From assembly GCA_960531495.1 (NCBI GenBank), contig CAUIJY010000068.1:558001-622000 (forward strand): 64,000 bases of DNA, read 5' to 3'. Below, in pieces: positions 1 through 25,826 of this stretch; the first letter of the stretch is position 1, and the number at the start of each line of letters is the position of its first letter. The position numbers and the translations under genes are program-made. Below the pieces are notes generated by a model that saw only the letters and a program-made list of their open reading frames with translations, was not told the DNA's origin and did no database searches. The stretch is from Zeus faber (lineage: Eukaryota; Chordata; Actinopteri; Zeiformes; Zeidae).

Positions 1-208
1 TACTGTTATGAACTGATTTGTAATGGGAAAGTACTGTTTGCAAAAGAGTTTTTGGCACATCTAACAAGTTTTTCTGAAATTACGAGCAGTTTCATAAAAA
101 CCTGCATGGGTGGCAAACATGGCATTTTCAGGCAATTTAAAGACTGAAAGGATGTTTTGAGTAAAGGTTTCTGTCATAACTCTGTAGGAACTGCTCAGAT
201 AGTGTAAA
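1..208 (+). repeat. Reference monomer (phase 1 = first T of TACTG)
   Basis: This monomer sets the phase used in this annotation. It has GAACTGATTT at 11-20, CAAAAGAG at 41-48, the decaying CpG at 83-84, GGGTGGCAAACATGG at about 108-122, and the TTTCAG/CTGAAA inverted pair at 126-131 and 144-149. Length is 208 bp and GC is 36%. Monomers differ from it by a few substitutions in most variants and by about 15 positions in variant D. Confidence 0.97.
126..149 (+). other. Second inverted pair in the monomer (phase 126-149)
   Basis: TTTCAG and CTGAAA flank a 12-bp AT-rich centre. The pair is unchanged in almost all monomers, although the centre varies (CAATTTAAAG, CCATTTAAAG, CAATTTGAAG, CCATTAAAAG). 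Short inverted pairs of this size can arise by chance, and no function is claimed. Confidence 0.5.
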
Positions 209-416
209 TACTGTTATGAACTCATTTGTAATGGGAAAGTACTGTTTGCAGAACAGTTTTTGGCATATCTAACAAGTTTTTCTGAAATTACAAGCATTTT
301 CATAAAAACCTGCATGGATGGCAAACAAGGCATTTTCAGGCAATTTAAAGACTGAAAGGATGTTTTGAGTAAAGGTTTCTGTCATAACTCTGTAGGAACT
401 GCTCAGATAAAGTAAA

Positions 417-625
417 TACTGTTATGAACTCATTTGTAATGGGAAAGTACTGTTTGCAGAACAGTTTTGGCACATCTAACAATTTTTTTTCTGAAATTAC
501 GAGCATTTTCATAAAAAACTGCATGGATGGCAAACAAGGCATTTTCAGGCCATTTAAAGACTGAAAGGATGTTTTGAGTAAAGATTTCTGTAATGACTCA
601 GTTGGAACTGCTCAGATAGTGTAAA
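417..625 (+). repeat. Variant E monomer (shortened and lengthened T-runs)
   Basis: Diagnostics: preceded by GATAAAG instead of GATAGTG, then GCAGAACAG with a four-T instead of five-T run, AACAA followed by seven or eight T, and CATAAAAAACTGC. The T lost in the first run is offset by the T gained in the second, so length is 208 or 209. In the 49-63 kb region most copies also carry GGCCATTAAAAG at the following junction. Confidence 0.9.
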
Positions 626-865
626 TACTGTTATGAACTGATTTGTAATGGGAAAGTACTGTTTGCAAAAGAGTTTTTGGCACATCTAACAAGTTTTTCT
701 GAAATTACAAGCACTTTCATAAAAACCTGCATGGATGGCAAACAAGGCATTTTCAGGCAATTTGAAGACTGAAAGGATGTTTTGAGTAAAGATTTATGTC
801 ATGACTCTGTAGGAACTGCTCAAATAGTGTAAATACTGTTATGAACTCATTTGTAATGGGAAAGT

Positions 866-882
866 ACTGTTTGCAAAACAGT
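866..882 (+). other. 17-bp dyad in the monomer (phase 33-49)
   Basis: ACTGTTTGCAAAACAGT has perfect 7-bp arms around GCA. It is present in this form in GCAAAACAG-type monomers. In D (GTA loop) the arms are intact. It is weakened in GCAGAACAG types (6-bp arms) and in CAAAAGAG types (one mismatch), so it is not conserved in all monomers. A protein-binding role is possible but not shown. Confidence 0.7.
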
Positions 883-1458
883 TTTTGGCACATCTAACAA
901 GTTTTTCTGAAATTACAAGCATTTTCATAAAAACCAGCATGGATGGCAAACAAGGCATTTTCAGGCAATTTAAAGACTGAAAGGATGTTTTGAGTAAAGG
1001 TTTCTGTCATGAATCTCTAGGACCGGCTCAGATAGTGTAAATACTGTTATGAACTGATTTGTAATGGGAAAGTACTGTTTGCAAAAGAGTTTTTGGCACA
1101 TCTAACAAGTTTTTCTGAAATTACGAGCAGTTTCATAAAAACCTGCATGGGTGGCAAACATGGCATTTTCAGGCAATTTAAAGACTGAAAGGATGTTTTG
1201 AGTAAAGGTTTCTGTCATGACTCTGTAGGACCTGCTCAGATAGTGTAAATACTGTTATGAACTCATTTGTAATGGGAAAGTACTGTTTGCAGAACAGTTT
1301 TTGGCACATCTAACACATTTTTTCTGAAATTACAAGCATTTTCATAAAAACCTGCATGGATGGCAAACAAGGCATTTTCAGGCAATTTAAAGACTGGAAG
1401 GATGTTTTGAGTAAAGGTTTCTGTCATGACTGTGTAGGAACTGCTCAGATAGTGTGAA

Positions 1459-1666
1459 TACTGTTTTGAACTCATTTGTAATTGGGAATGTACTGTTTGT
1501 AAAACAGTTTTTGGCACATCTAACAAGTATTTCTGAAATAATAAGCATTTTCATGAAACCTGCATGGATGGCAAACAAGGCATTTTCAGGCCATTTAAAG
1601 ACTGAAAGGATGTTTTGAGTAAAGATTTCTGTCATGACTCAGTAGGAACTGCTCAGATAGTGTAAA
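1459..1666 (+). repeat. Variant D monomer (most divergent type)
   Basis: Diagnostics: preceded by GTGTGAA, then TACTGTTTTGAACT, TAATTGGGAATG, TTTGTAAAACAG, AAGTATTTCTG, AAATAATAAGC, TCATGAAACC and GGCCATTTAAAG. Small gains and losses (AATTGGGAATG for AATGGGAAAG, and CATGAAACC for CATAAAAACC) nearly cancel, so the length stays at 207-208 bp. It recurs every 3 to 7 monomers across the window. A sub-type with CTCTTTGTAAAACAG follows F monomers (for example from 4,583). Another with CAGTTTGTGGC lies at 49.4 kb and in the 52-63 kb region. Confidence 0.92.
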
Positions 1667-4372
1667 TACTGTTATGAACTCATTTGTAATGGGAAAGTAC
1701 TGTTTGCAAAAGAGTTTTTGGCACATCTAACAAGTTTTTCTGAAATTACAAGCACTTTCATAAAAACCTGCATGGATGGCAAACAAGGCATTTTCAGGCA
1801 ATTTGAAGACTGAAAGGATGTTTTGAGTAAAGGTTTCTGTCATAACTCTGTAGGAACTGCTCAGATAGTGTAAATACTGTTATGAACTCATTTGTAGTGG
1901 GAAAGTACTGTTTGCAAAACAGTTTTTGGCACATCTAACAAGTTTTTCTGAAATTACGAGCAGTTTCATAAAAACCTGCATGGGTGGCAAACAAGGCATT
2001 TTCAGGCAATTTAAAGACTGAAAGGATGTTTTGAGTAAAGGTTTCTGTCATGACTCTCTAGGACCTGCTCAGATAGTGTAAATACTGTTATGAACTGATT
2101 TGTAATGGGAAAGTACTGTTTGCAAAAGAGTTTTTGGCACATCTAACAAGTTTTTCTGAAATTATGATCATTTTCATAAAAACCTGCATGGATGGCAAAC
2201 AAGGCATTTTCAGGCAATTTGAAGACTGAAAGGATGTTTTGAGTAAAGGTTTCCGTCATGACTCTCTAGGACCTGCTCAGATAGTGTAAATACTGTTTTG
2301 AACTCATTTGTAATTGGGAATGTACTGTTTGTAAAACAGTTTTTGGCACATCTAACAAGTATTTCTGAAATAATAAGCATTTTCATGAAACCTGCATGGA
2401 TGGCAAACAAGGCATTTTCAGGCCATTTAAAGACTGAAAGGATGTTTTGAGTAAAGATTTCTGTCATGACTCAGTAGGAACTGCTCAGATAGTGTAAATA
2501 CTGTTATGAACTCATTTGTAATGGGAAAGTACTGTTTGCAAAAGAGTTTATGGCACATCTAACAAGTTTTTCTGAAATTACAAGCATTTTCATAAAAACC
2601 AGCATGGATGGCAAACAAGGCATTTTCAGGCAATTTAAAGACTGAAAGGATGTTTTGAGTAAAGGTTTCTGTCATGAATCTCTAGGACCTGCTCAGATAG
2701 TGTAAATACTGTTATGAACTGATTTGTAATGGGAAAGTACTGTTTGCAAAAGAGTTTTTGGCACATCTAACAAGTTTTTCTGAAATTACGAGCAGTTTCA
2801 TAAAAACCTGCATGGGTGGCAAACATGGCATTTTCAGGCAATTTAAAGACTGAAAGGATGTTTTGAGTAAAGGTTTCTGTCATGACTCTGTAGGACCTGC
2901 TCAGATAGTGTAAATACTGTTATGAACTCATTTGTAATGGGAAAGTACTGTTTGCAGAACAGTTTTTGGCACATCTAACACATTTTTTCTGAAATTACAA
3001 GCATTTTCATAAAAACCTGCATGGATGGCAAACAAGGCATTTTCAGGCAATTTAAAGACTGGAAGGATGTTTTGAGTAAAGGTTTCTGTCATGACTGTGT
3101 AGGAACTGCTCAGATAGTGTGAATACTGTTTTGAACTCATTTGTAATTGGGAATGTACTGTTTGTAAAACAGTTTTTGGCACATCTAACAAGTATTTCTG
3201 AAAATAATAAGCATTTTCATGAAACCTGCATGGATGGCAAACAAGGCATTTTCAGGCCATTTAAAGACTGAAAGGATGTTTTGAGTAAAGATTTCTGTCA
3301 TGACTCAGTAGGAACTGCTCAGATAGTGTAAATACTGTTATGAACTCATTTGTAATGGGAAAGTACTGTTTGCAAAAGAGTTTTTGGCACATCTAACAAG
3401 TTTTTCTGAAATTACAAGCACTTTCATAAAAACCTGCATGGATGGCAAACAAGGCATTTTCAGGCAATTTGAAGACTGAAAGGATGTTTTGAGTAAAGGT
3501 TTCTGACATAACTCTGTAGGAACTGCTCAGATAGTGTAAATACTGTTATGAACTCATTTGTAGTGGGAAAGTACTGTTTGCAAAACAGTTTTTGACACAT
3601 CTAACAAGTTTTTCTGAAATTACGAGCAGTTTCATAAAAACCTGCATGGGTTGCAAACAAGGCATTTTCAGGCAATTTAAAGACTGAAAGGATGTTTTGA
3701 GTAAAGGTTTCTGTCATGACTCTCTAGGACCTGCTCAGATAGTGTAAATACTGTTATGAACTGATTTGTAATGGGAAAGTACTGTTTGCAAAAGAGTTTT
3801 TGGCACATCTAACAAGTTTTTCTGAAATTATGAGCATTTTCATAAAAACCTGCATGGATGGCAAACAAGGCATTTTCAGGCAATTTAAAGACTGAAAGGA
3901 TGTTTTGAGTAAAGGTTTCTGTCATAACTCTGTAGGAACTGCTCAGATAAAGTAAATACTGTTATGAACTCATTTGTAATGGGAAAGTACTGTTTGCAGA
4001 ACAGTTTTGGCACATCTAACAATTTTTTTCTGAAATTACGAGCATTTTCATAAAAAACTGCATGGATGGCAAACAAGGCATTTTCAGGCAATTTAAAGAC
4101 TGAAAGGATGTTTTGAGTAAAGGTTTCTGTCATGACTCTGTAGGACCTGCTCAGATAGTGTAAATACTGTTATGAACTCATTTGTAATGGGAAAGTACTG
4201 TTTGCAGAACAGTTTTTGGCACATCTAACAAGTTTTTCTGAAATTACGAGCAGTTTCATAAAAACCTGCATGGGTGGCAAACAAGGCATTTTCAGGCAAT
4301 TTAAAGACTGAAAGGATGTTTTGAGTAAAGGTTTCTGTCATAACTCTGTAGGAACTGCTCAGATAGTGTTAA

Positions 4373-4582
4373 TACTGTTATGAACTCATTTGTAATGGGA
4401 AAGTACTGTTTGCAGAACAGTTTTTGGCACATCTAACACATTTTTTTCTGAAATTACGAGCATTTTCATAAATACCTGCATGGATGGCAAACAATGCATT
4501 TTCAGGCAATTTAAAGACTGAAAGGATGTTTTGAGTAAAGGTTTCTGTCATGACTGTGTAGGAACTGCTCAGATAGTGTGAA
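4373..4582 (+). repeat. Variant F monomer
   Basis: Diagnostics: preceded by GTGTTAA (GTGTTTA in some copies), then GCAGAACAG, AACACA with a long T-run, CATAAATACCTGC and AACAATGCATT. Length is 210 bp, the longest type measured. It is always followed by the CTCTTTG sub-type of D where checked (4.6, 9.2, 15.2, 19.8, 28.7, 39.8, 46.2, 51.4, 53.5, 55.8 and 62.0 kb), except at the chimeric junction near 23,770. Confidence 0.88.
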
Positions 4583-4996
4583 TACTGTTTTGAACTCATT
4601 TGTAATTGGGAATGTACTCTTTGTAAAACAGTTTTTGGCACATCTAACAAGTATTTCTGAAATAATAAGCATTTTCATGAAACCTGCATGGATGGCAAAC
4701 AAGGCATTTTCAGGCCATTTAAAGACTGAAAGGATGTTTTGAGTAAAGATTTCTGTCATGACTGTAGGAACTGCTCAGATAGTGTAAATACTGTTATGAA
4801 CTGATTTGTAATGGGAAAGTACTGTTTGCAAAAGAGTTTTTGGCACATCTAACAAGTTTTTCTGAAATTATGAGCATTTTCATAAAAACCTGCGTGGATG
4901 GCAAACAAGGCATTTTCAGGCAATTTAAAGACTGAAAGGATGTTTTGAGTAAAGGTTTCTGCCATAACTCTGTAGGAACTGCTCAGATAGTGTAAA

Positions 4997-5204
4997 TACT
5001 GTTATGAACTCATTTGTAATGGGAAAGTACTGTTTGCAAAACAGTTTTTCGCACATCTAACAAGTTTTTCTGAAATTACGAGCAGTTTCATAAAAACCTG
5101 CATGGGTGGCAAACATGGCATTTTCAGGCAATTTAAAGACTGAAAGGATGTTTTGAGTAAAGGTTTCTGTCATGACTGTGTAGGAACTGCTCAGATAGTG
5201 TGAA
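4997..5204 (+). repeat. Variant C monomer (CpG-gain type)
   Basis: Diagnostic: the usual TTTTTGGCAC reads TTTTTCGCAC, a G-to-C change that creates a CpG. It is linked to CGAGCAG, GGGTGG and AACATGG in most copies. Related copies carry CTGCGTGG (for example near 33,633, 37,380 and 40,294) or CTGCAGGG (near 51,746, 53,830, 56,121 and 62,368). A D monomer normally follows at once, so C-D behaves as a linked pair through the window. Confidence 0.9.
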
Positions 5205-8200
5205 TACTGTTTTGAACTCATTTGTAATTGGGAATGTACTGTTTGTAAAACAGTTTTTGGCACATCTAACAAGTATTTCTGAAATAATAAGCATTTTCAT
5301 GAAACCTGCATGGATGGCAAACAAGGCATTTTCAGGCCATTTAAAGACTGAAAGGATGTTTTGAGTAAAGGTTTCTGTCATCACTCTCTAGGACCTGCTC
5401 AGATAGTGTAAATACTGTTATGAACTCATTTGTAATGGGAAAGTACTGTTTGCAGAACAGTTTTGGCACATCTAACAATTTTTTTTCTGAAATTACGAGC
5501 ATTTTCATAAAAAACTGCATGGATGGCAAACAAGGCATTTTCAGGCAATTTAAAGACTGAAAGGATGTTTTGAGTAAAGATTTCTGTCATGACTCTGTAG
5601 GAACTGCTCAGATAGTGTAAATACTGTTATGAACTCATTTGTAATGGGAAAGTACTGTTTGCAAAACAGTTTTTGGCACATCTAACAAGTTTTTCTGAAA
5701 TTACAAGCATTTTCATAAAAACCTGCATGGATGGCAAACAAGGCATTTTCAGGCAATTTAAAGACTGAAACAATGTTTTGAGTAAAGGTTTCTGTCATGA
5801 CTCTCTAGGACCTGCTCAGATAGTGTAAATACTGTTATGAACTGATTTGTAATGGGAAAGTACTGTTTGCAAAACAGTTTTTGGCACATCTAACAAGTTT
5901 TTCTGAAATTACGAGCAGTTTCATAAAAACCTGCATGGGTGGCAAACATGGCATTTTCAGGCAATTTAAAGACTGAAAGGATGTTTTGAGTAAAGGTTTC
6001 TGTCATGACTCTGTAGGACCTGCTCAGATAGGGTAAATACTGTTATGAACTCATTTGTAATGGGAAAGTACTGTTTGCAGAACAGTTTTTGGCACATCTA
6101 ACACATTTTTTCTGAAATTACGAGCATTTTCATAAAAACCTGCATGGATGGCAAACAAGGCATTTTCAGGCAATTTAAAGACTGGAAGGATGTTTTGAGT
6201 AAAGGTTTCTGTCATGACTGTGTAGGAACTGCTCAGATAGTGTGAATACTGTTTTGAACTCATTTGTAATTGGGAATGTACTGTTTGTAAAACAGTTTTT
6301 GGCACATCTAACAAGTATTTCTGAAATAATAAGCATTTTCATGAAACCTGCATGAATGGCAAACAAGGCATTTTCAGGCAATTTGAAGACTGAAAGGATG
6401 TTTTGAGTAAAGGTTTCTGTCATAACTCTGTAGGAACTGCTCAGATAGTGTAAATACTGTTATGAACTGATTTGTAATGGGAAAGTACTGTTTGCAAAAG
6501 AGTTTTTGGCACATCTAACAAGTTTTTCTGAAATTATGAGCATTTTCATAAAAACCTGCATGGATGGCAAACAAGGCATTTTCAGGCAATTTAAAGACTG
6601 AAAGGATGTTTTGAGTAAAGGTTTCTGTCATAACTCTGTAGGAACTGCTCAGATAAAGTAAATACTGTTATGAACTCATTTGTAATGGGAAAGTACTGTT
6701 TGCAGAACAGTTTTGGCACATCTAACAATTTTTTTCTGAAATTACGAGCATTTTCATAAAAAACTGCATGGATGGCAAACAAGGCATTTTCAGGCAATTT
6801 AAAGTCTGAAAGGATGTTTTGAGTAAAGGTTTCTGTCATAACTCTGTAGGAACTGCTCAGATAGTGTTTATACTGTTATGAACTCATTTGTAATGGGAAA
6901 GTACTGTTTGCAGAACAGTTTTTGGCACATCTAACACATTTTTTTCTGAAATTACGAGCATTTTCATAGGTACCTGCATGGATGGCAAACAATGCATTTT
7001 CAGGAAATTTAAAGACTGAAAGGATGTTTTGAGTAAAGGTTTCTGTCATGACTGTGTAGGAACTGCTCAGATAGTGTGAATACTGTTTTGAACTCCTTTG
7101 TAATGGGGAATGTACTCTTTGTAAAACAGTTTTTGGCACATCTAACAAGTATTTCTGAAATAATAAGCATTTTCATGAAACCTGCATGGATGGCAAACAA
7201 GGCATTTTCAGGCCATTTAAAGACTGAAAGGATGTTTTGAGTAAAGATTTCTGTCATGACTCTGTAGGAACTGCTCAGATAGTGTAAATACTGTTATGAA
7301 CTGATTTGTAATGGGAAAGTACTGTTTGCAAAAGAGTTTTTGGCACATCTAACAAGTTTTTCTGAAATTATGAGCATTTTCATAAAAACCTGCATGGATG
7401 GCAAACAAGGCATTTTCAGGCAATTTAAAGACTGAAAGGATGTTTTGAGTAAAGGTTTCTGCCATAACTCTGTAGGAACTGCTCAGATAGTGTAAATACT
7501 GTTATGAACTGATTTGTAATGGGAAAGTACTGTTTGCAAAACAGTTTTTCGCACATCTAACAAGTTTTTCTGAAATTACGAGCAGTTTCATAAAAACCTG
7601 CATGGGTGGCAAACATGGCATTTTCAGGCAATTTAAAGACTGAAAGGATGTTTTGAGTAAAGGTTTCTGTCATGACTGTGTAGGAACTGCTCAGATAGTG
7701 TGAATACTGTTTTGAACTCATTTGTAATTGGGAATGTACTGTTTGTAAAACAGTTTTTGGCACATCTAACAAGTATTTCTGAAATAATAAGCATTTTCAT
7801 GAAACCTGCATGGATGGCAAACAAGGCATTTTCAGGCCATTTAAAGACTGAAAGGATGTTTTGAGTAAAGGTTTCTGTCATAACTCTGTAGGAACTGCTC
7901 AGATAAAGTAAATACTGTTATGAACTCATTTGTAATGGGAAAGTACTGTTTGCAGAACAGTTTTGGCACATCTAACAATTTTTTTTCTGAAATTACGAGC
8001 ATTTTCATAAAAAACTGCATGGATGGCAAACAAGGCATTTTCAGGCAATTTAAAGACTGAAAGGATGTTTTGAGTAAAGATTTCTGTCATGACTCTGTAG
8101 GAACTGCTCAGATAGTGTAAATACTGTTATGAACTCATTTGTAATGGGAAAGTACTGTTTGCAAAACAGTTTTTGGCACATCTATCAAGTTTTTCTGAAA

Positions 8201-8329
8201 TTACAAGCATTTTCATAAAAACCTGCATGGATGGCAAACAAGGCATTTTCAGGCAATTTAAAGACTGAAAGTATGTTTTGAGGAAAGGTTTCTGTCATGA
8301 CTCTCTAGGACCTGCTCAGATAGTGTAAA

Positions 8330-8537
8330 TACTGTTATGAACTGATTTGTAATGGGAAAGTACTGGTTGCAAAAGAGTTTTTGGCACATCTAACAAGTTT
8401 TTCTGAAATTACGAGCAGTTTCATAAAAACCTGCATGGATGGCAAACAAGGCATTTTCAGGCAATTTAAAGACTGAAAGGATGTTTTGAGTAAAGGTTTC
8501 TGTCATAACTCTGTAGGAACTGCTCAGATAAAGTAAA
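8330..8537 (+). repeat. Variant G monomer (GGTTGC type)
   Basis: Diagnostics: preceded by TCTCTAGGACCTGCTCAG, then GAACTGATTT and TACTGGTTGCAAAAGAG in place of TACTGTTTGC. The 3' part varies (CGAGCAG, ATGAGCATT or CGAGCATT), which shows that 5' and 3' halves have been exchanged between types. It is frequent in 22.9-63.5 kb. Confidence 0.88.
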
Positions 8538-10965
8538 TACTGTTATGAACTCATTTGTAATGGGAAAGTACTGTTTGCAGAACAGTTTTGGCACATCAAA
8601 CAATTTTTTTCTGAAATTACGAGCATTTTCATAAAAAACTGCATGGATGGCAAACAAGGCATTTTCAGGCAATTTAAAGACTGAAAGGATATTTTGAGTA
8701 AAGGTTTCTGTCATGACTCTGTAGGACCTGCTCAGATAGTGTAAATACTGTTATGAACTCATTTGTAATGGGAAAGTACTGTTTGCAGAACAGTTTTTGG
8801 CACATCTAACAAGTTTTTCTGAAATTACGAGCAGTTTCATAAAAACCTGCATGGGTGGCAAACAAGGCATTTTCAGGCAATTTAAAGACTGAAAGGATGT
8901 TTTGAGTAAAGGTTTCTGTCATAACTCTGTAGGAACTGCTCAGATAGTGTTAATACTGTTATGAACTCATTTGTAATGGGAAAGTACTGTTTGCAGAACA
9001 GTTTTTGGCACATCTAACACATTTCTTTCTGAAATTACGAGCATTTTCATAAATACCTGCATGGATGGCAAACAATGCATTTTCAGGCAATTTAAAGACT
9101 GAAAGGATGTTTTGAGTAAAGGTTTCTGTCATGACTGTGTAGGAACTGCTCAGATAGTGTGAATACTGTTTTGAACTCATTTGTAATTGGGAATGTACTC
9201 TTTGTAAAACAGTTTTTGGCACATCTAACAAGTATTTCTGAAATAATAAGCATTTTCATGAAACCTGCATGGATGGCAAACAAGGCATTTTCAGGCCATT
9301 TAAAGACTGAAAGGATGTTTTGAGTAAAGATTTCTGTCATGACTCTGTAGGAACTGCTCAGATAGTGTAAATACTGTTATGAACTGATTTGTAATGGGAA
9401 AGTACTGTTTGCAAAAGAGTTTTTGGCACATCTAACAAGTTTTTCTGAAATTATGAGCATTTTCATAAAAACCTGCATGGATGGCAAACAAGGCATTTTC
9501 AGGCAATTTAAAGACTGAAAGGATGTTTTGAGTAAAGGTTTCTGTCATAACTCTGTAGGAACTGCTCAGATAAAGTAAATACTGTTATGAACTCATTTGT
9601 AATGGGAAAGTACTGTTTGCAGAACAGTTTTGGCACATCTAACAATTTTTTTCTGAAATTACGAGCATTTTCATAAAAAACTGCATGGATGGCAAACAAG
9701 GCATTTTCAGGCAATTTAAAGACTGAAAGGATGTTTTGAGTAAAGGTTTCTGTCATTACTCTGTAGGACCTGCTCAGATAGTGTAAATACTGTTATGAAC
9801 TCATTTGTAATGGGAAAGTACTGTTTGCAGAAAAGTTTTTGGCACATCTAACAAGTTTTTCTGAAATTACGAGCAGTTTCATAAAAACCTGCATGGGTGG
9901 CAAACAAGGCATTTTCAGGCAATTTAAAGACTGAAAGGATGTTTTGAGTAAAGGTTTCTGTCATAACTCTGTAGGAACTGCTCAGATAGTGTTTATACTG
10001 TTATGAACTCATTTGTAATGGGAAAGTACTGTTTGCAGAACAGTTTTTGGCACATCTAACACATTTTTTTCTGAAATTACGAGCATTTTCATAAATACCT
10101 GCATGGATGGCAAACAATGCATTTTCAGGAAATTTAAAGACTGAAAGGATGTTTTGAGTAAAGGTTTCTGTCATGACTGTGTAGGAACTGCTCAGATAGT
10201 GTGAATACTGTTTTGAACTCCTTTGTAATGGGGAATGTACTCTTTGTAAAACAGTTTTTGGCACATCTAACAAGTATTTCTGAAATAATAAGCATTTTCA
10301 TGAAACCTGCATGGATGGCAAACAAGGCATTTTCAGGCCATTTAAAGACTGAAAGGATGTTTTGAGTAAAGATTTCTGTCATGACTCTGTAGGAACTGCT
10401 CAGATAGTGTAAATACTGTTATGAACTGATTTGTAATGGGAAAGTACTGTTTACAAAAGAGTTTTTGGCACATCTAACAAGTTTTTCTGAAATTATGAGC
10501 ATTTTCATAAAAACCTGCATGGATGGCAAACAAGGCATTTTCAGGCAATTTAAAGACTGAAAGGATGTTTTGAGTAAAGGTTTCTGCCATAACTCTGTAG
10601 GAACTGCTCAGATAGTGTAAATACTGTTATGAACTGATTTGTAATGGGAAAGTACTGTTTGCAAAACAGTTTTTCGCACATCTAACAAGTTTTTCTGAAA
10701 TTACGAGCAGTTTCATAAAAACCTGCATGGGTGGCAAACATGGCATTTTCAGGCAATTTAAAGACTGAAAGGATGTTTTGAGTAAAGGTTTCTGTCATGA
10801 CTGTGTAGGAACTGCTCAGATAGTGTGAATACTGTTTTGAACTCATTTGTAATTGGGAATGTACTGTTTGTAAAACAGTTTTTGGCACATCTAACAAGTA
10901 TTTCTGAAATAATAAGCATTTTCATGAAACCTGCATGGATGGCAAACAAGGCATTTTCAGGCCAT

Positions 10966-13900
10966 TTAAAGACTGAAAGGATGTTTTGAGTAAAGGTTTC
11001 TGTCATAACTCTGTAGGAACTGCTCAGATAAAGTAAATACTGTTATGAACTCATTTGTAATGGGAAAGTACTGTTTGCAGAACAGTTTTGGCACATCTAA
11101 CAATTTTTTTTCTGAAATTACGAGCATTTTCATAAAAAACTGCATGGATGGCAAACAAGGCATTTTCAGGCAATTTAAAGACTGAAAGGATGTTTTGAGT
11201 AAAGATTTCTGTCATGACTCAGTTGGAACTGCTCAGATAGTGTAAATACTGTTATGAACTCATTTGTAATGGGAAAGTACTGTTTGCAAAAGAGTTTTTG
11301 GCACATCTAACAAGTTTTTCTGAAATTACAAGCACTTTCATAAAAACCTGCATGGATGGCAAACAAGGCATTTTCAGGCAATTTGAAGACTGAAAGGATG
11401 TTTTGAGTAAAGATTTATGTCATGACTCTGTAGGAACTGCTCAGATAGTGTAAATACTGTTATGAACTCATTTGTAATGGGAAAGTACTGTTTGCAAAAC
11501 AGTTTTTGGCACATCTAACAAGTTTTTCTGAAATTACAAGCATTTTCATAAAAACCAGCATGGATGGCAAACAAGGCATTTTCAGGCAATTTAAAGACTG
11601 AAAGGATGTTTTGAGTAAAGGTTTCTGTCATGAATCTCTAGGACCGGCTCAGATAGTGTAAATACTGTTATGAACTGATTTGTAATGGGAAAGTACTGTT
11701 TGCAAAAGAGTTTTTGGCACATCTAACAAGTTTTTCTGAAATTACGAGCAGTTTCATAAAAACCTGCATGGGTGGCAAACATGGCATTTTCAGGCAATTT
11801 AAAGACTGAAAGGATGTTTTGAGTAAAGGTTTCTGTCATGACTCTGTAGGACCTGCTCAGATAGTGTAAATACTGTTATGAACTCATTTGTAATGGGAAA
11901 GTACTGTTTGCAGAACAGTTTTTGGCACATCTAACACATTTTTTCTGAAATTACAAGCATTTTCATAAAAACCTGCATGGATGGCAAACAAGGCATTTTC
12001 AGGCAATTTAAAGACTGGAAGGATGTTTTGAGTAAAGGTTTCTGTCATGACTGTGTAGGAACTGCTCAGATAGTGTGAATACTGTTTTGAACTCATTTGT
12101 AATTGGGAATGTACTGTTTGTAAAACAGTTTTTGGCACATCTAACAAGTATTTCTGAAATAATAAGCATTTTCATGAAACCTGCATGGATGGCAAACAAG
12201 GCATTTTCAGGCCATTTAAAGACTGAAAGGATGTTTTGAGTAAAGATTTCTGTCATGACTCAGTAGGAACTGCTCAGATAGTGTAAATACTGTTATGAAC
12301 TCATTTGTAATGGGAAAGTACTGTTTGCAAAAGAGTTTTTGGCACATCTAACAAGTTTTTCTGAAATTACAAGCACTTTCATAAAAACCTGCATGGATGG
12401 CAAACAAGGCATTTTCAGGCAATTTGAAGACTGAAAGGATGTTTTGAGTAAAGGTTTCTGTCATAACTCTGTAGGAACTGCTCAGATAGTGTAAATACTG
12501 TTATGAACTCATTTGTAGTGGGAAAGTACTGTTTGCAAAACAGTTTTTGGCACATCTAACAAGTTTTTCTGAAATTACGAGCAGTTTCATAAAAACCTGC
12601 ATGGGTGGCAAACAAGGCATTTTCAGGCAATTTAAAGACTGAAAGGATGTTTTGAGTAAAGGTTTCTGTCATGACTCTCTAGGACCTGCTCAGATAGTGT
12701 AAATACTGTTATGAACTGATTTGTAATGGGAAAGTACTGTTTGCAAAAGAGTTTTTGGCACATCTAACAAGTTTTTCTGAAATTATGATCATTTTCATAA
12801 AAACCTGCATGGATGGCAAACAAGGCATTTTCAGGCAATTTGAAGACTGAAAGGATGTTTTGAGTAAAGGTTTCCGTCATGACTCTCTAGGACCTGCTCA
12901 GATAGTGTAAATACTGTTTTGAACTCATTTGTAATTGGGAATGTACTGTTTGTAAAACAGTTTTTGGCACATCTAACAAGTATTTCTGAAATAATAAGCA
13001 TTTTCATGAAACCTGCATGGATGGCAAACAAGGCATTTTCAGGCCATTTAAAGACTGAAAGGATGTTTTGAGTAAAGATTTCTGTCATGACTCAGTAGGA
13101 ACTGCTCAGATAGTGTAAATACTGTTATGAACTCATTTGTAATGGGAAAGTACTGTTTGCAAAAGAGTTTATGGCACATCTAACAAGTTTTTCTGAAATT
13201 ACAAGCATTTTCATAAAAACCAGCATGGATGGCAAACAAGGCATTTTCAGGCAATTTAAAGACTGAAAGGATGTTTTGAGTAAAGGTTTCTGTCATGAAT
13301 CTCTAGGACCTGCTCAGATAGTGTAAATACTGTTATGAACTGATTTGTAATGGGAAAGTACTGTTTGCAAAAGAGTTTTTGGCACATCTAACAAGTTTTT
13401 CTGAAATTACGAGCAGTTTCATAAAAACCTGCATGGGTGGCAAACATGGCATTTTCAGGCAATTTAAAGACTGAAAGGATGTTTTGAGTAAAGGTTTCTG
13501 TCATGACTCTGTAGGACCTGCTCAGATAGTGTAAATACTGTTATGAACTCATTTGTAATGGGAAAGTACTGTTTGCAGAACAGTTTTTGGCACATCTAAC
13601 ACATTTTTTCTGAAATTACAAGCATTTTCATAAAAACCTGCATGGATGGCAAACAAGGCATTTTCAGGCAATTTAAAGACTGGAAGGATGTTTTGAGTAA
13701 AGGTTTCTGTCATGACTGTGTAGGAACTGCTCAGATAGTGTGAATACTGTTTTGAACTCATTTGTAATTGGGAATGTACTGTTTGTAAAACAGTTTTTGG
13801 CACATCTAACAAGTATTTCTGAAAATAATAAGCATTTTCATGAAACCTGCATGGATGGCAAACAAGGCATTTTCAGGCCATTTAAAGACTGAAAGGATGT

Positions 13901-16900
13901 TTTGAGTAAAGATTTCTGTCATGACTCAGTAGGAACTGCTCAGATAGTGTAAATACTGTTATGAACTCATTTGTAATGGGAAAGTACTGTTTGCAAAAGA
14001 GTTTTTGGCACATCTAACAAGTTTTTCTGAAATTACAAGCACTTTCATAAAAACCTGCATGGATGGCAAACAAGGCATTTTCAGGCAATTTGAAGACTGA
14101 AAGGATGTTTTGAGTAAAGGTTTCTGACATAACTCTGTAGGAACTGCTCAGATAGTGTAAATACTGTTATGAACTCATTTGTAGTGGGAAAGTACTGTTT
14201 GCAAAACAGTTTTTGACACATCTAACAAGTTTTTCTGAAATTACGAGCAGTTTCATAAAAACCTGCATGGGTTGCAAACAAGGCATTTTCAGGCAATTTA
14301 AAGACTGAAAGGATGTTTTGAGTAAAGGTTTCTGTCATGACTCTCTAGGACCTGCTCAGATAGTGTAAATACTGTTATGAACTGATTTGTAATGGGAAAG
14401 TACTGTTTGCAAAAGAGTTTTTGGCACATCTAACAAGTTTTTCTGAAATTATGAGCATTTTCATAAAAACCTGCATGGATGGCAAACAAGGCATTTTCAG
14501 GCAATTTAAAGACTGAAAGGATGTTTTGAGTAAAGGTTTCTGTCATAACTCTGTAGGAACTGCTCAGATAAAGTAAATACTGTTATGAACTCATTTGTAA
14601 TGGGAAAGTACTGTTTGCAGAACAGTTTTGGCACATCTAACAATTTTTTTCTGAAATTACGAGCATTTTCATAAAAAACTGCATGGATGGCAAACAAGGC
14701 ATTTTCAGGCAATTTAAAGACTGAAAGGATGTTTTGAGTAAAGGTTTCTGTCATGACTCTGTAGGACCTGCTCAGATAGTGTAAATACTGTTATGAACTC
14801 ATTTGTAATGGGAAAGTACTGTTTGCAGAACAGTTTTTGGCACATCTAACAAGTTTTTCTGAAATTACGAGCAGTTTCATAAAAACCTGCATGGGTGGCA
14901 AACAAGGCATTTTCAGGCAATTTAAAGACTGAAAGGATGTTTTGAGTAAAGGTTTCTGTCATAACTCTGTAGGAACTGCTCAGATAGTGTTAATACTGTT
15001 ATGAACTCATTTGTAATGGGAAAGTACTGTTTGCAGAACAGTTTTTGGCACATCTAACACATTTTTTTCTGAAATTACGAGCATTTTCATAAATACCTGC
15101 ATGGATGGCAAACAATGCATTTTCAGGCAATTTAAAGACTGAAAGGATGTTTTGAGTAAAGGTTTCTGTCATGACTATGTAGGAACTGCTCAGATAGTGT
15201 GAATACTGTTTTGAACTCATTTGTAATTGGGAATGTACTCTTTGTAAAACAGTTTTTGGCACATCTAACAAGTATTTCTGAAATAATAAGCATTTTCATG
15301 AAACCTGCATGGATGGCAAACAAGGCATTTTCAGGCCATTTAAAGACTGAAAGGATGTTTTGAGTAAAGATTTCTGTCATGACTGTAGGAACTGCTCAGA
15401 TAGTGTAAATACTGTTATGAACTGATTTGTAATGGGAAAGTACTGTTTGCAAAAGAGTTTTTGGCACATCTAACAAGTTTTTCTGAAATTATGAGCATTT
15501 TCATAAAAACCTGCGTGGATGGCAAACAAGGCATTTTCAGGCAATTTAAAGACTGAAAGGATGTTTTGAGTAAAGGTTTCTGCCATAACTCTGTAGGAAC
15601 TGCTCAGATAGTGTAAATACTGTTATGAACTCATTTGTAATGGGAAAGTACTGTTTGCAAAACAGTTTTTCGCACATCTAACAAGTTTTTCTGAAATTAC
15701 GAGCAGTTTCATAAAAACCTGCATGGGTGGCAAACATGGCATTTTCAGGCAATTTAAAGACTGAAAGGATGTTTTGAGTAAAGGTTTCTGTCATGACTGT
15801 GTAGGAACTGCTCAGATAGTGTGAATACTGTTTTGAACTCATTTGTAATTGGGAATGTACTGTTTGTAAAACAGTTTTTGGCACATCTAACAAGTATTTC
15901 TGAAATAATAAGCATTTTCATGAAACCTGCATGGATGGCAAACAAGGCATTTTCAGGCCATTTAAAGACTGAAAGGATGTTTTGAGTAAAGGCTTCTGTC
16001 ATCACTCTCTAGGACCTGCTCAGATAGTGTAAATACTGTTATGAACTCATTTGTAATGGGAAAGTACTGTTTGCAGAACAGTTTTGGCACATCTAACAAT
16101 TTTTTTTCTGAAATTACGAGCATTTTCATAAAAAACTGCATGGATGGCAAACAAGGCATTTTCAGGCAATTTAAAGACTGAAAGGATGTTTTGAGTAAAG
16201 ATTTCTGTCATGACTCTGTAGGAACTGCTCAGATAGTGTAAATACTGTTATGAACTCATTTGTAATGGGAAAGTACTGTTTGCAAAACAGTTTTTGGCAC
16301 ATCTAACAAGTTTTTCTGAAATTACAAGCATTTTCATAAAAACCTGCATGGATGGCAAACAAGGCATTTTCAGGCAATTTAAAGACTGAAACAATGTTTT
16401 GAGTAAAGGTTTCTGTCATGACTCTCTAGGACCTGCTCAGATAGTGTAAATACTGTTATGAACTGATTTGTAATGGGAAAGTACTGTTTGCAAAACAGTT
16501 TTTGGCACATCTAACAAGTTTTTCTGAAATTACGAGCAGTTTCATAAAAACCTGCATGGGTGGCAAACATGGCATTTTCAGGCAATTTAAAGACTGAAAG
16601 GATGTTTTGAGTAAAGGTTTCTGTCATGACTCTGTAGGACCTGCTCAGATAGGGTAAATACTGTTATGAACTCATTTGTAATGGGAAAGTACTGTTTGCA
16701 GAACAGTTTTTGGCACATCTAACACATTTTTTCTGAAATTACGAGCATTTTCATAAAAACCTGCATGGATGGCAAACAAGGCATTTTCAGGCAATTTAAA
16801 GACTGGAAGGATGTTTTGAGTAAAGGTTTCTGTCATGACTGTGTAGGAACTGCTCAGATAGTGTGAATACTGTTTTGAACTCATTTGTAATTGGGAATGT

Positions 16901-19900
16901 ACTGTTTGTAAAACAGTTTTTGGCACATCTAACAAGTATTTCTGAAATAATAAGCATTTTCATGAAACCTGCATGGATGGCAAACAAGGCATTTTCAGGC
17001 AATTTGAAGACTGAAAGGATGTTTTGAGTAAAGGTTTCTGTCATAACTCTGTAGGAACTGCTCAGATAGTGTAAATACTGTTTTGAACTGATTTGTAATG
17101 GGAAAGTACTGTTTGCAAAAGAGTTTTTGGCACATCTAACAAGTTTTTCTGAAATTATGAGCATTTTCATAAAAACCTGCATGGATGGCAAACAAGGCAT
17201 TTTCAGGCAATTTAAAGACTGAAAGGATGTTTTGAGTAAAGGTTTCTGTCATAACTCTGTAGGAACTGCTCAGATAAAGTAAATACTGTTATGAACTCAT
17301 TTGTAATGGGAAAGTACTGTTTGCAGAACAGTTTTGGCACATCTAACAATTTTTTTCTGAAATTACGAGCATTTTCATAAAAAACTGCATGGATGGCAAA
17401 CAAGGCATTTTCAGGCAATTTAAAGACTGAAAGGATGTTTTGAGTAAAGGTTTCTGTCATAACTCTGTAGGAACTGCTCAGATAGTGTTTATACTGTTAT
17501 GAACTCATTTGTAATGGGAAAGTACTGTTTGCAGAACAGTTTTTGGCACATCTAACACATTTTTTTCTGAAATTACGAGCATTTTCATAAATACCTGCAT
17601 GGATGGCAAACAATGCATTTTCAGGAAATTTAAAGACTGAAAGGATGTTTTGAGTAAAGGTTTCTGTCATGACTGTGTAGGAACTGCTCAGATAGTGTGA
17701 ATACTGTTTTGAACTCCTTTGTAATGGGGAATGTACTCTTTGTAAAACAGTTTTTGGCACATCTAACAAGTATTTCTGAAATAATAAGCATTTTCATGAA
17801 ACCTGCATGGATGGCAAACAAGGCATTTTCAGGCCATTTAAAGACTGAAAGGATGTTTTGAGTAAAGATTTCTGTCATGACTCTGTAGGAACTGCTCAGA
17901 TAGTGTAAATACTGTTATGAACTGATTTGTAATGGGAAAGTACTGTTTGCAAAAGAGTTTTTGGCACATCTAACAAGTTTTTCTGAAATTATGAGCATTT
18001 TCATAAAAACCTGCATGGATGGCAAACAAGGCATTTTCAGGCAATTTAAAGACTGAAAGGATGTTTTGAGTAAAGGTTTCTGCCATAACTCTGTAGGAAC
18101 TGCTCAGATAGTGTAAATACTGTTATGAACTGATTTGTAATGGGAAAGTACTGTTTGCAAAACAGTTTTTCGCACATCTAACAAGTTTTTCTGAAATTAC
18201 GAGCAGTTTCATAAAAACCTGCATGGGTGGCAAACATGGCATTTTCAGGCAATTTAAAGACTGAAAGGATGTTTTGAGTAAAGGTTTCTGTCATGACTGT
18301 GTAGGAACTGCTCAGATAGTGTGAATACTGTTTTGAACTCATTTGTAATTGGGAATGTACTGTTTGTAAAACAGTTTTTGGCACATCTAACAAGTATTTC
18401 TGAAATAATAAGCATTTTCATGAAACCTGCATGGATGGCAAACAAGGCATTTTCAGGCCATTTAAAGACTGAAAGGATGTTTTGAGTAAAGGTTTCTGTC
18501 ATAACTCTGTAGGAACTGCTCAGATAAAGTAAATACTGTTATGAACTCATTTGTAATGGGAAAGTACTGTTTGCAGAACAGTTTTGGCACATCTAACAAT
18601 TTTTTTTCTGAAATTACGAGCATTTTCATAAAAAACTGCATGGATGGCAAACAAGGCATTTTCAGGCAATTTAAAGACTGAAAGGATGTTTTGAGTAAAG
18701 ATTTCTGTCATGACTCTGTAGGAACTGCTCAGATAGTGTAAATACTGTTATGAACTCATTTGTAATGGGAAAGTACTGTTTGCAAAACAGTTTTTGGCAC
18801 ATCTATCAAGTTTTTCTGAAATTACAAGCATTTTCATAAAAACCTGCATGGATGGCAAACAAGGCATTTTCAGGCAATTTAAAGACTGAAAGTATGTTTT
18901 GAGGAAAGGTTTCTGTCATGACTCTCTAGGACCTGCTCAGATAGTGTAAATACTGTTATGAACTGATTTGTAATGGGAAAGTACTGGTTGCAAAAGAGTT
19001 TTTGGCACATCTAACAAGTTTTTCTGAAATTACGAGCAGTTTCATAAAAACCTGCATGGATGGCAAACAAGGCATTTTCAGGCAATTTAAAGACTGAAAG
19101 GATGTTTTGAGTAAAGGTTTCTGTCATAACTCTGTAGGAACTGCTCAGATAAAGTAAATACTGTTATGAACTCATTTGTAATGGGAAAGTACTGTTTGCA
19201 GAACAGTTTTGGCACATCAAACAATTTTTTTCTGAAATTACGAGCATTTTCATAAAAAACTGCATGGATGGCAAACAAGGCATTTTCAGGCAATTTAAAG
19301 ACTGAAAGGATATTTTGAGTAAAGGTTTCTGTCATGACTCTGTAGGACCTGCTCAGATAGTGTAAATACTGTTATGAACTCATTTGTAATGGGAAAGTAC
19401 TGTTTGCAGAACAGTTTTTGGCACATCTAACAAGTTTTTCTGAAATTACGAGCAGTTTCATAAAAACCTGCATGGGTGGCAAACAAGGCATTTTCAGGCA
19501 ATTTAAAGACTGAAAGGATGTTTTGAGTAAAGGTTTCTGTCATAACTCTGTAGGAACTGCTCAGATAGTGTTAATACTGTTATGAACTCATTTGTAATGG
19601 GAAAGTACTGTTTGCAGAACAGTTTTTGGCACATCTAACACATTTCTTTCTGAAATTACGAGCATTTTCATAAATACCTGCATGGATGGCAAACAATGCA
19701 TTTTCAGGCAATTTAAAGACTGAAAGGATGTTTTGAGTAAAGGTTTCTGTCATGACTGTGTAGGAACTGCTCAGATAGTGTGAATACTGTTTTGAACTCA
19801 TTTGTAATTGGGAATGTACTCTTTGTAAAACAGTTTTTGGCACATCTAACAAGTATTTCTGAAATAATAAGCATTTTCATGAAACCTGCATGGATGGCAA

Positions 19901-21586
19901 ACAAGGCATTTTCAGGCCATTTAAAGACTGAAAGGATGTTTTGAGTAAAGATTTCTGTCATGACTCTGTAGGAACTGCTCAGATAGTGTAAATACTGTTA
20001 TGAACTGATTTGTAATGGGAAAGTACTGTTTGCAAAAGAGTTTTTGGCACATCTAACAAGTTTTTCTGAAATTATGAGCATTTTCATAAAAACCTGCATG
20101 GATGGCAAACAAGGCATTTTCAGGCAATTTAAAGACTGAAAGGATGTTTTGAGTAAAGGTTTCTGTCATAACTCTGTAGGAACTGCTCAGATAAAGTAAA
20201 TACTGTTATGAACTCATTTGTAATGGGAAAGTACTGTTTGCAGAACAGTTTTGGCACATCTAACAATTTTTTTCTGAAATTACGAGCATTTTCATAAAAA
20301 ACTGCATGGATGGCAAACAAGGCATTTTCAGGCAATTTAAAGACTGAAAGGATGTTTTGAGTAAAGGTTTCTGTCATGACTCTGTAGGACCTGCTCAGAT
20401 AGTGTAAATACTGTTATGAACTCATTTGTAATGGGAAAGTACTGTTTGCAGAAAAGTTTTTGGCACATCTAACAAGTTTTTCTGAAATTACGAGCAGTTT
20501 CATAAAAACCTGCATGGGTGGCAAACAAGGCATTTTCAGGCAATTTAAAGACTGAAAGGATGTTTTGAGTAAAGGTTTCTGTCATAACTCTGTAGGAACT
20601 GCTCAGATAGTGTTTATACTGTTATGAACTCATTTGTAATGGGAAAGTACTGTTTGCAGAACAGTTTTTGGCACATCTAACACATTTTTTTCTGAAATTA
20701 CGAGCATTTTCATAAATACCTGCATGGATGGCAAACAATGCATTTTCAGGAAATTTAAAGACTGAAAGGATGTTTTGAGTAAAGGTTTCTGTCATGACTG
20801 TGTAGGAACTGCTCAGATAGTGTGAATACTGTTTTGAACTCCTTTGTAATGGGGAATGTACTCTTTGTAAAACAGTTTTTGGCACATCTAACAAGTATTT
20901 CTGAAATAATAAGCATTTTCATGAAACCTGCATGGATGGCAAACAAGGCATTTTCAGGCCATTTAAAGACTGAAAGGATGTTTTGAGTAAAGATTTCTGT
21001 CATGACTCTGTAGGAACTGCTCAGATAGTGTAAATACTGTTATGAACTGATTTGTAATGGGAAAGTACTGTTTACAAAAGAGTTTTTGGCACATCTAACA
21101 AGTTTTTCTGAAATTATGAGCATTTTCATAAAAACCTGCATGGATGGCAAACAAGGCATTTTCAGGCAATTTAAAGACTGAAAGGATGTTTTGAGTAAAG
21201 GTTTCTGCCATAACTCTGTAGGAACTGCTCAGATAGTGTAAATACTGTTATGAACTGATTTGTAATGGGAAAGTACTGTTTGCAAAACAGTTTTTCGCAC
21301 ATCTAACAAGTTTTTCTGAAATTACGAGCAGTTTCATAAAAACCTGCATGGGTGGCAAACATGGCATTTTCAGGCAATTTAAAGACTGAAAGGATGTTTT
21401 GAGTAAAGGTTTCTGTCATGACTGTGTAGGAACTGCTCAGATAGTGTGAATACTGTTTTGAACTCATTTGTAATTGGGAATGTACTGTTTGTAAAACAGT
21501 TTTTGGCACATCTAACAAGTATTTCTGAAATAATAAGCATTTTCATGAAACCTGCATGGATGGCAAACAAGGCATTTTCAGGCCAT
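10966..21586 (+). repeat. 51-monomer higher-order unit, copy 2
   Basis: This is a tandem copy of 345-10,965 at an offset of 10,621 bp. Differences I noticed (copy 1/copy 2): 551 C/A, 592 A/C, 640 G/C, 823 A/G, 4556 G/A, 6462 A/T, 6969-6970 GG/AA and 9757 T/G, plus single changes near 5,362/15,983 and 6,805/17,426. This is about a dozen in 10.6 kb, so the copies are roughly 99.9% identical by eye. A base-by-base alignment was not run. The 3-monomer-scale variant order is the same in both. Confidence 0.92.
11247..11454 (+). repeat. Variant K monomer (ACAAGCACTTTC type)
   Basis: Diagnostics: ACAAGCACTTTC in place of ACGAGCATTTTC, linked to CAATTTGAAGAC. Some copies add TTTTCTGGC for TTTTCAGGC and AGAAAGTG for AGATAGTG (35.1, 38.6, 41.6, 45.3 and 48.0 kb). 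Those linked changes make it a good tag for the 17/18- and 31/32-monomer repeats. Confidence 0.85.
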
Positions 21587-22673
21587 TTAAAGACTGAAAG
21601 GATGTTTTGAGTAAAGGTTTCTGTCATAACTCTGTAGGAACTGCTCAGATAAAGTAAATACTGTTATGAACTCATTTGTAATGGGAAAGTACTGTTTGCA
21701 GAACAGTTTTGGCACATCTAACAATTTTTTTTCTGAAATTACGAGCATTTTCATAAAAAACTGCATGGATGGCAAACAAGGCATTTTCAGGCAATTTAAA
21801 GACTGAAAGGATGTTTTGAGTAAAGATTTCTGTCATGACTCTGTAGGAACTGCTCAGATAGTGTAAATACTGTTATGAACTGATTTGTAATGGGAAAGTA
21901 CTGTTTGCAAAAGAGTTTTTGGCACATCTAACAAGTTTTTCTGAAATTATGAGCATTTTCATAAAAACCTGCATGGATGGCAAACAAGGCATTTTCAGGC
22001 AAATTAAAGACTGAAAGGATGTTTTGAGTAAAGGTTTCTGCCATAACTCTGTAGGAACTGCTCAGATAGTGTAAATACTGTTATGAACTGATTTGTAATG
22101 GGAAAGTACTGTTTGCAAAACAGTTTTTCGCACATCTAACAAGTTTTTCTGAAATTACGAGCAGTTTCATAAAAACCTGCATGGGTGGCAAACATGGCAT
22201 TTTCAGGCAATTTAAAGACTGAAAGGATGTTTTGAGTAAAGGTTTCTGTCATGACTGTGTAGGAACTGCTCAGATAGTGTGAATACTGTTTTGAACTCAT
22301 TTGTAATTGGGAATGTACTGTTTGTAAAACAGTTTTTGGCACATCTAACAAGTATTTCTGAAATAATAAGCATTTTCATGAAACCTGCATGGATGGCAAA
22401 CAAGGCATTTTCAGGCCATTTAAAGACTGAAAGGATGTTTTGAGTAAAGGTTTCTGTCATAACTCTGTAGGAACTGCTCAGATAAAGTAAATACTGTTAT
22501 GAACTCATTTGTAATGGGAAAGTACTGTTTGCAGAACAGTTTTGGCACGTCTAACAATTTTTTTTCTGAAATTACGAGCATTTTCATAAAAAACTGCATG
22601 GATGGCAAACAAGGCATTTTCAGGCAATTTAAAGACTGAAAGGATGTTTTGAGTAAAGATTTCTGTCATGACT
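21008..22673 (+). repeat. Local tandem duplication of 4 monomers (833 bp)
   Basis: Positions 21,008-21,840 recur as 21,841-22,673. Landmarks at 21,303, 21,379 and 21,587 reappear at 22,136, 22,212 and 22,420. Differences include TTTACAAAAG near 21,071 against TTTGCAAAAG near 21,904, CAAATTAAAG near 22,000, and GGCACGTC near 22,545. The duplication straddles the right edge of the 51-mer copy, so it arose at or after that edge. Confidence 0.88.
21587..21840 (+). repeat. Start of a third 51-mer copy, broken off
   Basis: This matches the beginning of the unit (345 and 10,966 onwards) up to about 21,840. There GACTCTGTAGG replaces the GACTCAGTTGG found at 11,219, and the match stops. It shows that the array once had, or still has elsewhere, a longer 51-mer series. 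Confidence 0.78.
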
Positions 22674-23770
22674 CTGTAGGAACTGCTCAGATAGTGTAAA
22701 TACTGTTATGAACTCATTTGTAATGGGAAAGTACTGTTTGCAAAACAGTTTTTGGCACATCTAACAAGTTTTTCTGAAATTACAAGCATTTTCATAAAAA
22801 CCTGCATGGATGGCAAACAAGGCATTTTCAGGCAATTTAAAGACTGAAAGTATGTTTTGAGGAAAGGTTTCTGTCATGACTCTCTAGGACCTGCTCAGAT
22901 AGTGTAAATACTGTTATGAACTGATTTGTAATGGGAAAGTACTGGTTGCAAAAGAGTTTTTGGCACATCTAACAAGTTTTTCTGAAATTACGAGCAGTTT
23001 CATAAAAACCTGCATGGATGGCAAACAAGGCATTTTCAGGCAATTTAAAGACTGAAAGGATGTTTTGAGTAAAGGTTTCTGTCATAACTCTGTAGGAACT
23101 GCTCAGATAAAGTAAATACTGTTATGAACTCATTTGTAATGGGAAAGTACTGTTTGCAGAACAGTTTTGGCACATCAAACAATTTTTTTCTGAAATTACG
23201 AGCATTTTCATAAAAAACTGCATGGATGGCAAACAAGGCATTTTCAGGCAATTTAAAGACTGAAAGGATATTTTGAGTAAAGGTTTCTGTCATGACTCTG
23301 TAGGACCTGCTCAGATAGTGTAAATACTGTTATGAACTCATTTGTAATGGGAAAGTACTGTTTGCAGAACAGTTTTTGGCACATCTAACAAGTTTTTCTG
23401 AAATTACGAGCAGTTTCATAAAAACCTGCATGGGTGGCAAACAAGGCATTTTCAGGCAATTTAAAGACTGAAAGGATGTTTTGAGTAAAGGTTTCTGTCA
23501 TAACTCTGTAGGAACTGCTCAGATAGTGTTAATACTGTTATGAACTCATTTGTAATGGGAAAGTACTGTTTGCAGAACAGTTTTTGGCACATCTAACACA
23601 TTTCTTTCTGAAATTACGAGCATTTTCATAAATACCTGCATGGATGGCAAACAATGCATTTTCAGGCAATTTAAAGACTGAAAGGATGTTTTGAGTAAAG
23701 GTTTCTGTCATGACTGTGTAGGAACTGCTCAGATAGTGTGAATACTGTTTTGAACTCATTTGTAATTGGG
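22674..23770 (+). repeat. Re-used segment of the 51-mer (3,958-bp offset)
   Basis: This matches about 18,716-19,812 (offset 3,958, 19 monomers) and the equivalent place near 8.1-9.2 kb. Shared rare marks are GAAAGTATG with GAGGAAAGG, ACATCAAACA, GGATATTTTGAG and AACACATTTCTTTCTG. It ends at a chimeric monomer at 23,767-23,773. Confidence 0.85.
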
Positions 23771-25745: not shown

Positions 25746-25826
25746 TCAGGCAATTTGAAGACTGAAAGGATGTTTTGAGTAAAGGTTTCTGTCATAACTC
25801 TGTAGGAACTGCTCAGATAGTGTAAA
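25618..25826 (+). repeat. Variant T monomer (CATCTTACACA type)
   Basis: Diagnostic: ATCTAACA is changed to ATCTTACACA, with GCAGAACAG upstream. This first copy and the one near 30.25 kb also carry TTTTTGCTG. Later copies (34.6, 38.2, 40.9, 41.3, 44.8, 47.5, 48.6, 50.2, 60.9 and 63.8 kb) have TTTTTTCTG. The type is absent before 25.6 kb, so it marks the right two thirds of the window. Confidence 0.88.

What the first reader, a model, noticed from the sequence alone, without database searches (positions are those of the whole stretch)
345..21840. Nearly perfect 51-monomer (10,621-bp) tandem duplication of satellite
Seen: every variant landmark recurs at exactly 10,621 bp with no net indel over more than 10 kb, and only about a dozen differences were noticed. 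Known: HOR units of most satellites contain far fewer monomers (a few to a few tens). Inference: one very large, recent unequal exchange or segmental amplification, or an assembly artefact.
Basis: partly seen in the sequence, partly recalled or inferred. Interest (0 to 1): 0.7.

Follow-up and report, generated by a model that had tools for sequence, protein, structure and literature searches.

The report
Recent 10.6-kb duplication inside satellite array
A stretch of 51 satellite repeat units in a very long repeat array appears to have been copied once, end to end, quite recently; the sequence really shows this, but the surrounding array is full of similar copies, one nearly four times larger, so it looks like ordinary satellite turnover rather than something exceptional.

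Summary
The 64-kb window is one 208-bp satellite array. Positions 343-11,220 match 10,964-21,841 at a lag of exactly 10,621 bp (51 monomers), with 12 substitutions and no indel. 41 of 51 monomer pairs are identical. Shuffled monomer order gives runs of at most 5 similar monomers; 52 are observed. It is a two-copy, in-register tandem segmental duplication, not a repeating 51-monomer higher-order unit.

The window is C77:558,001-622,000, in a 2.63-Mb contig of an 803-Mb genome. All 8 samples of C77 from base 1 to 1.70 Mb are this satellite; beyond that come 69-74% relatives and other DNA. In the 264 kb read without a break, 1,064 of 1,268 monomers lie in near-identical blocks of 8 or more monomers. 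A 38.7-kb block to the left is duplicated at the same ~0.10% divergence. So the 51-mer is the longest unbroken tandem copy there, but not the largest duplication.

Best explanation: one out-of-register homologous exchange or break-induced replication event. An assembly error cannot be excluded without reads. Interest is low.

The parts
1..64000 (+). 208-bp satellite array filling the window (TRF: 307.3 copies, 92% matches)
   Evidence: TRF; monomer decomposition (mean 96.4% identity to consensus); no Rfam match at gathering score, no ORF of 150 aa or more
343..10963 (+). first copy of the 51-monomer unit (one choice of register; the exchange point lies within 342-599)
   Evidence: shift comparison
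10964..21584 (+). second copy of the 51-monomer unit; the match continues to 21,841
   Evidence: shift comparison; 41 of 51 monomer pairs identical
10964..11220 (+). junction zone: 257 bp alike (2 differences) to the start of copy 1 and identical to the end of the match after copy 2, in phase with the monomers; the exchange is placed here
   Evidence: the match is 257 bp longer than the lag; monomer lengths unchanged across the junction
6355..6970 (+). cluster of 5 of the differences between the copies (P=0.009; P=0.07 if 6969/6970 count as one event)
49085..53042 (+). a second, separate lag-51 similarity: 13 monomers (49,085-51,792) recur 10,622 bp further on with 3 differences, then two unlike monomers, then 4 more (52,210-53,042) with 2 differences; content unrelated to the main unit
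   Evidence: content test
35344..39296 (+). 19-monomer block duplicated at 42,006 (lag 32 monomers, 6,662 bp)
   Evidence: 19 monomers, 99.9%; 18 monomers, 1 difference
52002..54292 (+). 11-monomer tandem duplication (14-monomer match at lag 2,291, no substitution)

Best explanation
A single recent tandem segmental duplication inside a large, homogenised 208-bp satellite array, probably centromeric or pericentromeric. Shown: two head-to-tail copies of 51 monomers, in register, with no indel, the junction within 257 bp of shared homology, then substitutions that differ between the copies. Inferred: two sister chromatids or homologues paired out of register by 51 monomers, or a collapsed replication fork restarted 51 monomers behind itself (break-induced replication), so the product holds the segment twice. 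Inferred: the array has no fixed higher-order unit, and repeated events of this kind, from about 5 to about 190 monomers, built it.
For: Exact lag, 12 substitutions, 0 indels. The match exceeds the lag by 257 bp, as expected when exchange happens inside a homologous stretch, and monomer phase is kept. Just outside the match the same lag gives 5-21 differences per monomer (18 monomer pairs examined), against 11.5 for random pairs. 13 of the 51 monomer sequences of copy 1 occur exactly twice in 264 kb, once in each copy, so the event came after they had arisen. 8 of 12 differences involve a base seen in at most 4 of 1,268 monomers, as expected of new mutations. Same style of duplication throughout the neighbourhood: 171 collinear block pairs of 8 or more monomers; 13 tandem pairs with lags 5-51; a 38.7-kb block duplicated with 36 differences over 169 aligned monomers. 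Unequal exchange and BIR are the published models for such structure (PMC8997354, passages).
Against: No reads, so the assembly is taken on trust. Difference 640 lies just inside every allowed exchange point and joins two common array variants; this needs a later conversion or a repeat mutation. Five differences cluster at 6355-6970, which a uniform clock does not predict. Within the window alone, lag 51 is the best of all lags and recurs at a second place, which a single event does not explain. Unequal exchange and BIR cannot be told apart here.
Confidence: 0.82

Rival explanations
1. Assembly artefact: the two copies are the two haplotypes (or an assembly-graph loop walked twice) wrongly laid end to end.
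For: 0.09-0.11% divergence is in the range of ordinary heterozygosity (recalled); the ~39-kb duplication to the left has about the same 0.10%. C77 starts inside the array, so the assembler did break in this satellite.
Against: Markers lie at most 3,733 bp apart, which long accurate reads would bridge (inference; the read type is unknown). Duplicated blocks of 10 or more monomers in the same array range from 0 to 0.53% divergence (84 pairs), not one heterozygosity value. Joining two haplotypes in register with a hybrid junction, without gap or indel, would need coincidence.
Confidence: 0.15
2. A true 51-monomer higher-order repeat unit, of which two copies fall in the window.
For: Within the window lag 51 is the best monomer lag, and it recurs at 49,085-53,042 (13 + 4 monomers).
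Against: Only two full copies in 264 kb. Over 264 kb lag 51 ranks 18th of 399 lags, with 11.01 differences per monomer against a median of 11.36. The second lag-51 pair has unrelated content.
Confidence: 0.03

Closest known systems
Arabidopsis CEN178 arrays, where HORs are called as pairs of duplicated monomer blocks (TRASH definition, PMC10199239, passages read)
   Same: Long array of one short monomer; overlapping pairwise block duplications rather than one fixed unit (for Arabidopsis partly recalled).
   Different: Monomer length 208 against 178 bp; sequences not compared. I have no block-length distribution from a paper to say where 51 or ~186 monomers would rank there.
Human alpha-satellite higher-order repeats
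   Same: Multi-monomer units attributed to unequal exchange or BIR (PMC8997354, passages); most identical sequence at the centre and divergent copies at the periphery (PMC11062924, passages).
   Different: Human HORs recur with a fixed period; the longest is 34 monomers, on the Y (PMC8997354, passages). Here the unit occurs twice in 264 kb. No CENP-B box in the window, allowing one mismatch (motif recalled).
Cichlid SATA centromeric satellite of about 209 bp (monomer length recalled)
   Same: Similar monomer length; associated with cichlid centromeres (PMC6447674, passages).
   Different: No SATA sequence was available to compare; identity untested.

Membership tests
Higher-order repeat, block-pair definition (TRASH) | A pair of blocks with the same number of monomers (3 or more) and at most 5 differences between monomers in the same place (TRASH defaults) | tested here: met
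   52 consecutive monomer pairs with 0-2 differences each; definition from PMC10199239
Classical higher-order repeat (alpha-satellite type) | The multi-monomer unit recurs many times with a fixed period | tested here: not met
   Two full copies in the 264 kb read; no dominant monomer lag there. The rest of C77 was not read.
Tandem segmental duplication by out-of-register homologous exchange | Head-to-tail copies, junction inside homologous sequence, monomer phase kept | tested here: met
   257-bp overlap at the junction, equal monomer lengths
Tandem segmental duplication by out-of-register homologous exchange | Present on single DNA molecules | not testable with these tools
   no reads held
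Centromeric satellite | Very long homogeneous array with older divergent copies at the edge | tested here: met
   95.8-97.3% identity to consensus in 8 of 8 C77 samples from 0 to 1.70 Mb; 69-74% relatives in 9 of 19 samples from 1.75 Mb on
Centromeric satellite | Binds CENP-A/CenH3 | not testable with these tools
   no ChIP data
Cichlid SATA satellite | Sequence identity to SATA | not tested
   no SATA sequence at hand

The most novel reading that the evidence does not exclude
This array turns over mainly by very large tandem copying steps (10 to about 40 kb, 50 to about 190 monomers), rather than by the few-monomer steps usually pictured; the 10.6-kb and 38.7-kb duplications, both about 0.1% diverged, would then be two of the latest such steps.
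Probability: 0.2. Interest if true: 0.45.

Novelty: new member of a known kind. Interest (0 to 1): 0.22.

Why it matters
It is a clean, datable example of a single large duplication in a satellite array, with junction and later mutations both readable. Together with the nested blocks around it, it could help estimate how large the copying steps are that build such arrays. On its own it fits published models.

Tried and rejected
Rejected: chance similarity; a regular 51-monomer HOR over the 264 kb read; long open frames and known structural RNA in the window; CENP-B box. The second lag-51 match at 49,085/59,707 is not a copy of the same unit.

Led nowhere: naming the organism or satellite. An exact scan of viral contigs with a 27-base satellite piece found 0. 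Paper searches: '208 bp satellite' (0 papers); '208-bp' with satellite, centromer and monomer (1 paper, on a characiform-fish satellite, listing only); 'ONSATA' (2 papers, of which passages of one were read); '208 bp' with satellite, centromer and higher-order repeat (1 paper, on hemp, listing only); a 21-base piece of the satellite (0 papers). Broader searches on satellite duplication gave 2, 1, 102 (15 listed) and 2 papers; I read passages of four, and used three of these. Inverted repeats in one monomer stretch were listed and not used. A search by family for a vertebrate marker gene and a whole-genome search for further copies of the unit did not complete. A long gapped chain over the whole 264 kb joins many unrelated blocks and was not used as such; only its part from monomer 490 to 675 was, with limits that I chose by eye. 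Because that chain may skip unlike monomers (17 of 186 in one block, 45 of 214 in the other), its 0.10% is a lower estimate.

Full report
The observation. Comparing the window with itself shifted by 10,621 bases shows a near-perfect match from 343 to 11,220, i.e. against 10,964 to 21,841. There are 12 mismatches, at 551, 592, 640, 823, 4556, 5372, 6355, 6462, 6805, 6969, 6970 and 9757, and no indel: the 52 monomer pairs have equal lengths. The whole window is one array of a 208-bp satellite, with monomers 96.4% identical to their consensus on average. Random monomers in the surrounding 264 kb differ by 11.5 of 208 bases on average. Shuffling the order of the 1,268 monomers 100 times never gave a run of similar pairs (2 differences or fewer) longer than 5; the duplication gives 52.

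Setting. The window is C77:558,001-622,000 of an 803-Mb genome in 153 contigs; C77 is 2.63 Mb long. All 8 samples of C77 between base 1 and 1.70 Mb (seven of 3 kb, one of 10 kb) are filled with the same satellite at 95.8-97.3% identity, in one orientation. Of 19 samples from 1.75 Mb to the end (3, 16), 9 hold diverged relatives (69-74%, either strand), 3 are GA-rich repeats, and 7 show no match to the satellite consensus. That is the usual picture of a homogenised core with an older edge, so a centromeric or pericentromeric array is likely, but nothing here tests kinetochore binding. The array was sampled, not read, outside 358,001-632,000. A zinc-knuckle (PF00098) frame lies in the edge at 2.20 Mb, by recall like ORF1 of a LINE found in fish; this is weak evidence on the host.

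Anatomy of the event. If an exchange joins position c+10,621 to c, exactly 10,621 bases match at that lag. The match is 257 bases longer, so c lies between 342 and 599, within a stretch where the two partners were already alike. Monomer phase is unbroken there. Placing c just after 592 leaves 10 differences in 10,621 bases, 0.094% (95% range 0.045-0.173%); counting all 12 over 10,878 bases gives 0.110%. Eight of the 12 involve a base that occurs in at most 4 of 1,268 monomers, as expected of new mutations; the other four (551, 640, 6462, 6969) swap bases that are each common in the array and could be gene conversion. 551 and 592 lie in the zone where the partners may simply have differed. Five differences cluster at 6355-6970 (P = 0.009 for uniform scatter, 0.07 if the adjacent pair is one event). 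41 of 51 monomer pairs are identical, and 13 of the unit's monomer sequences occur nowhere else in the 264 kb than once in each copy.

Is it exceptional? Within the 264 kb read without a break (358,001-622,000), 171 collinear pairs of blocks of 8 or more monomers were found, covering 1,064 of 1,268 monomers, or 981 if this duplication is left out. Thirteen pairs are tandem, with lags from 5 to 51 monomers; this is the longest. But a 48-monomer block recurs 12.9 kb away with 3 differences, and a 38.7-kb block (459,871-498,600) is followed 2.1 kb later by a second version (500,681-545,236): 169 aligned monomers, 36 differences (0.102%, a lower estimate because unlike monomers may be skipped), with 12 gaps of 1-14 monomers. 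Block pairs of 10 or more monomers range from 0 to 0.53% divergence (84 pairs). Within the window lag 51 is the best lag, but over 264 kb it ranks 18th of 399. A second lag-51 similarity (49,085-53,042; 13 and then 4 monomers) has unrelated content. So the duplication is the longest unbroken tandem copy in this stretch but one member of a broad range.

Mechanism. Unequal exchange between out-of-register repeats, and break-induced replication restarting behind the fork, are the published models (PMC8997354; passages read). Both predict what is seen: direct orientation, kept register, junction in homology. The data do not separate them. That the step was 51 monomers long is inferred from the lag, with no sign of later gains or losses of monomers inside either copy.

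Artefact. Without reads a false duplication cannot be excluded. Against it: phase markers lie at most 3,733 bp apart, so accurate reads of ordinary long-read length would link them; and duplications of many sizes and divergences occur throughout. For it: the shared 0.1% of two of the largest duplications would also fit heterozygosity between two haplotypes.

Verdict. By the block-pair definition of TRASH (PMC10199239, passages) it is a HOR pair; by the classical definition, as far as the 264 kb show, it is not a HOR.

Noticed in passing
G000:C77:459,871-545,236 (loci L019-L027), left of the window: A 38.7-kb satellite block is followed by a second version of 44.6 kb, about 0.10% diverged over 169 aligned monomers with 12 whole-monomer gaps: a larger near-tandem duplication than the one reported.
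   Followed up: partly
window 6355-6970: Five of the differences between the two copies fall within 616 bp; possible conversion patch or multi-base mutation (6969/6970 adjacent).
   Followed up: partly
G000:C77:389,243 and 392,925: Two shortened monomers of 150 bp, 3,682 bp apart, inside a tandem duplication of 18 monomers.
   Followed up: no
G000:C77 about 1.75-2.63 Mb (L038, L039, L041, L044-L047, L053, L054): Divergent (69-74%) relatives of the satellite on both strands, near GA-rich repeats and other DNA: an older edge of the array.
   Followed up: partly
L049 (C77:2,200,001-2,201,000): 333-codon open frame with zinc knuckles (PF00098), probably from a retrotransposon.
   Followed up: partly
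L040 (contig C95, 88 kb): A second contig whose 3-kb sample is wholly the same satellite at 96.5% identity; it could be part of the same or another array.
   Followed up: no
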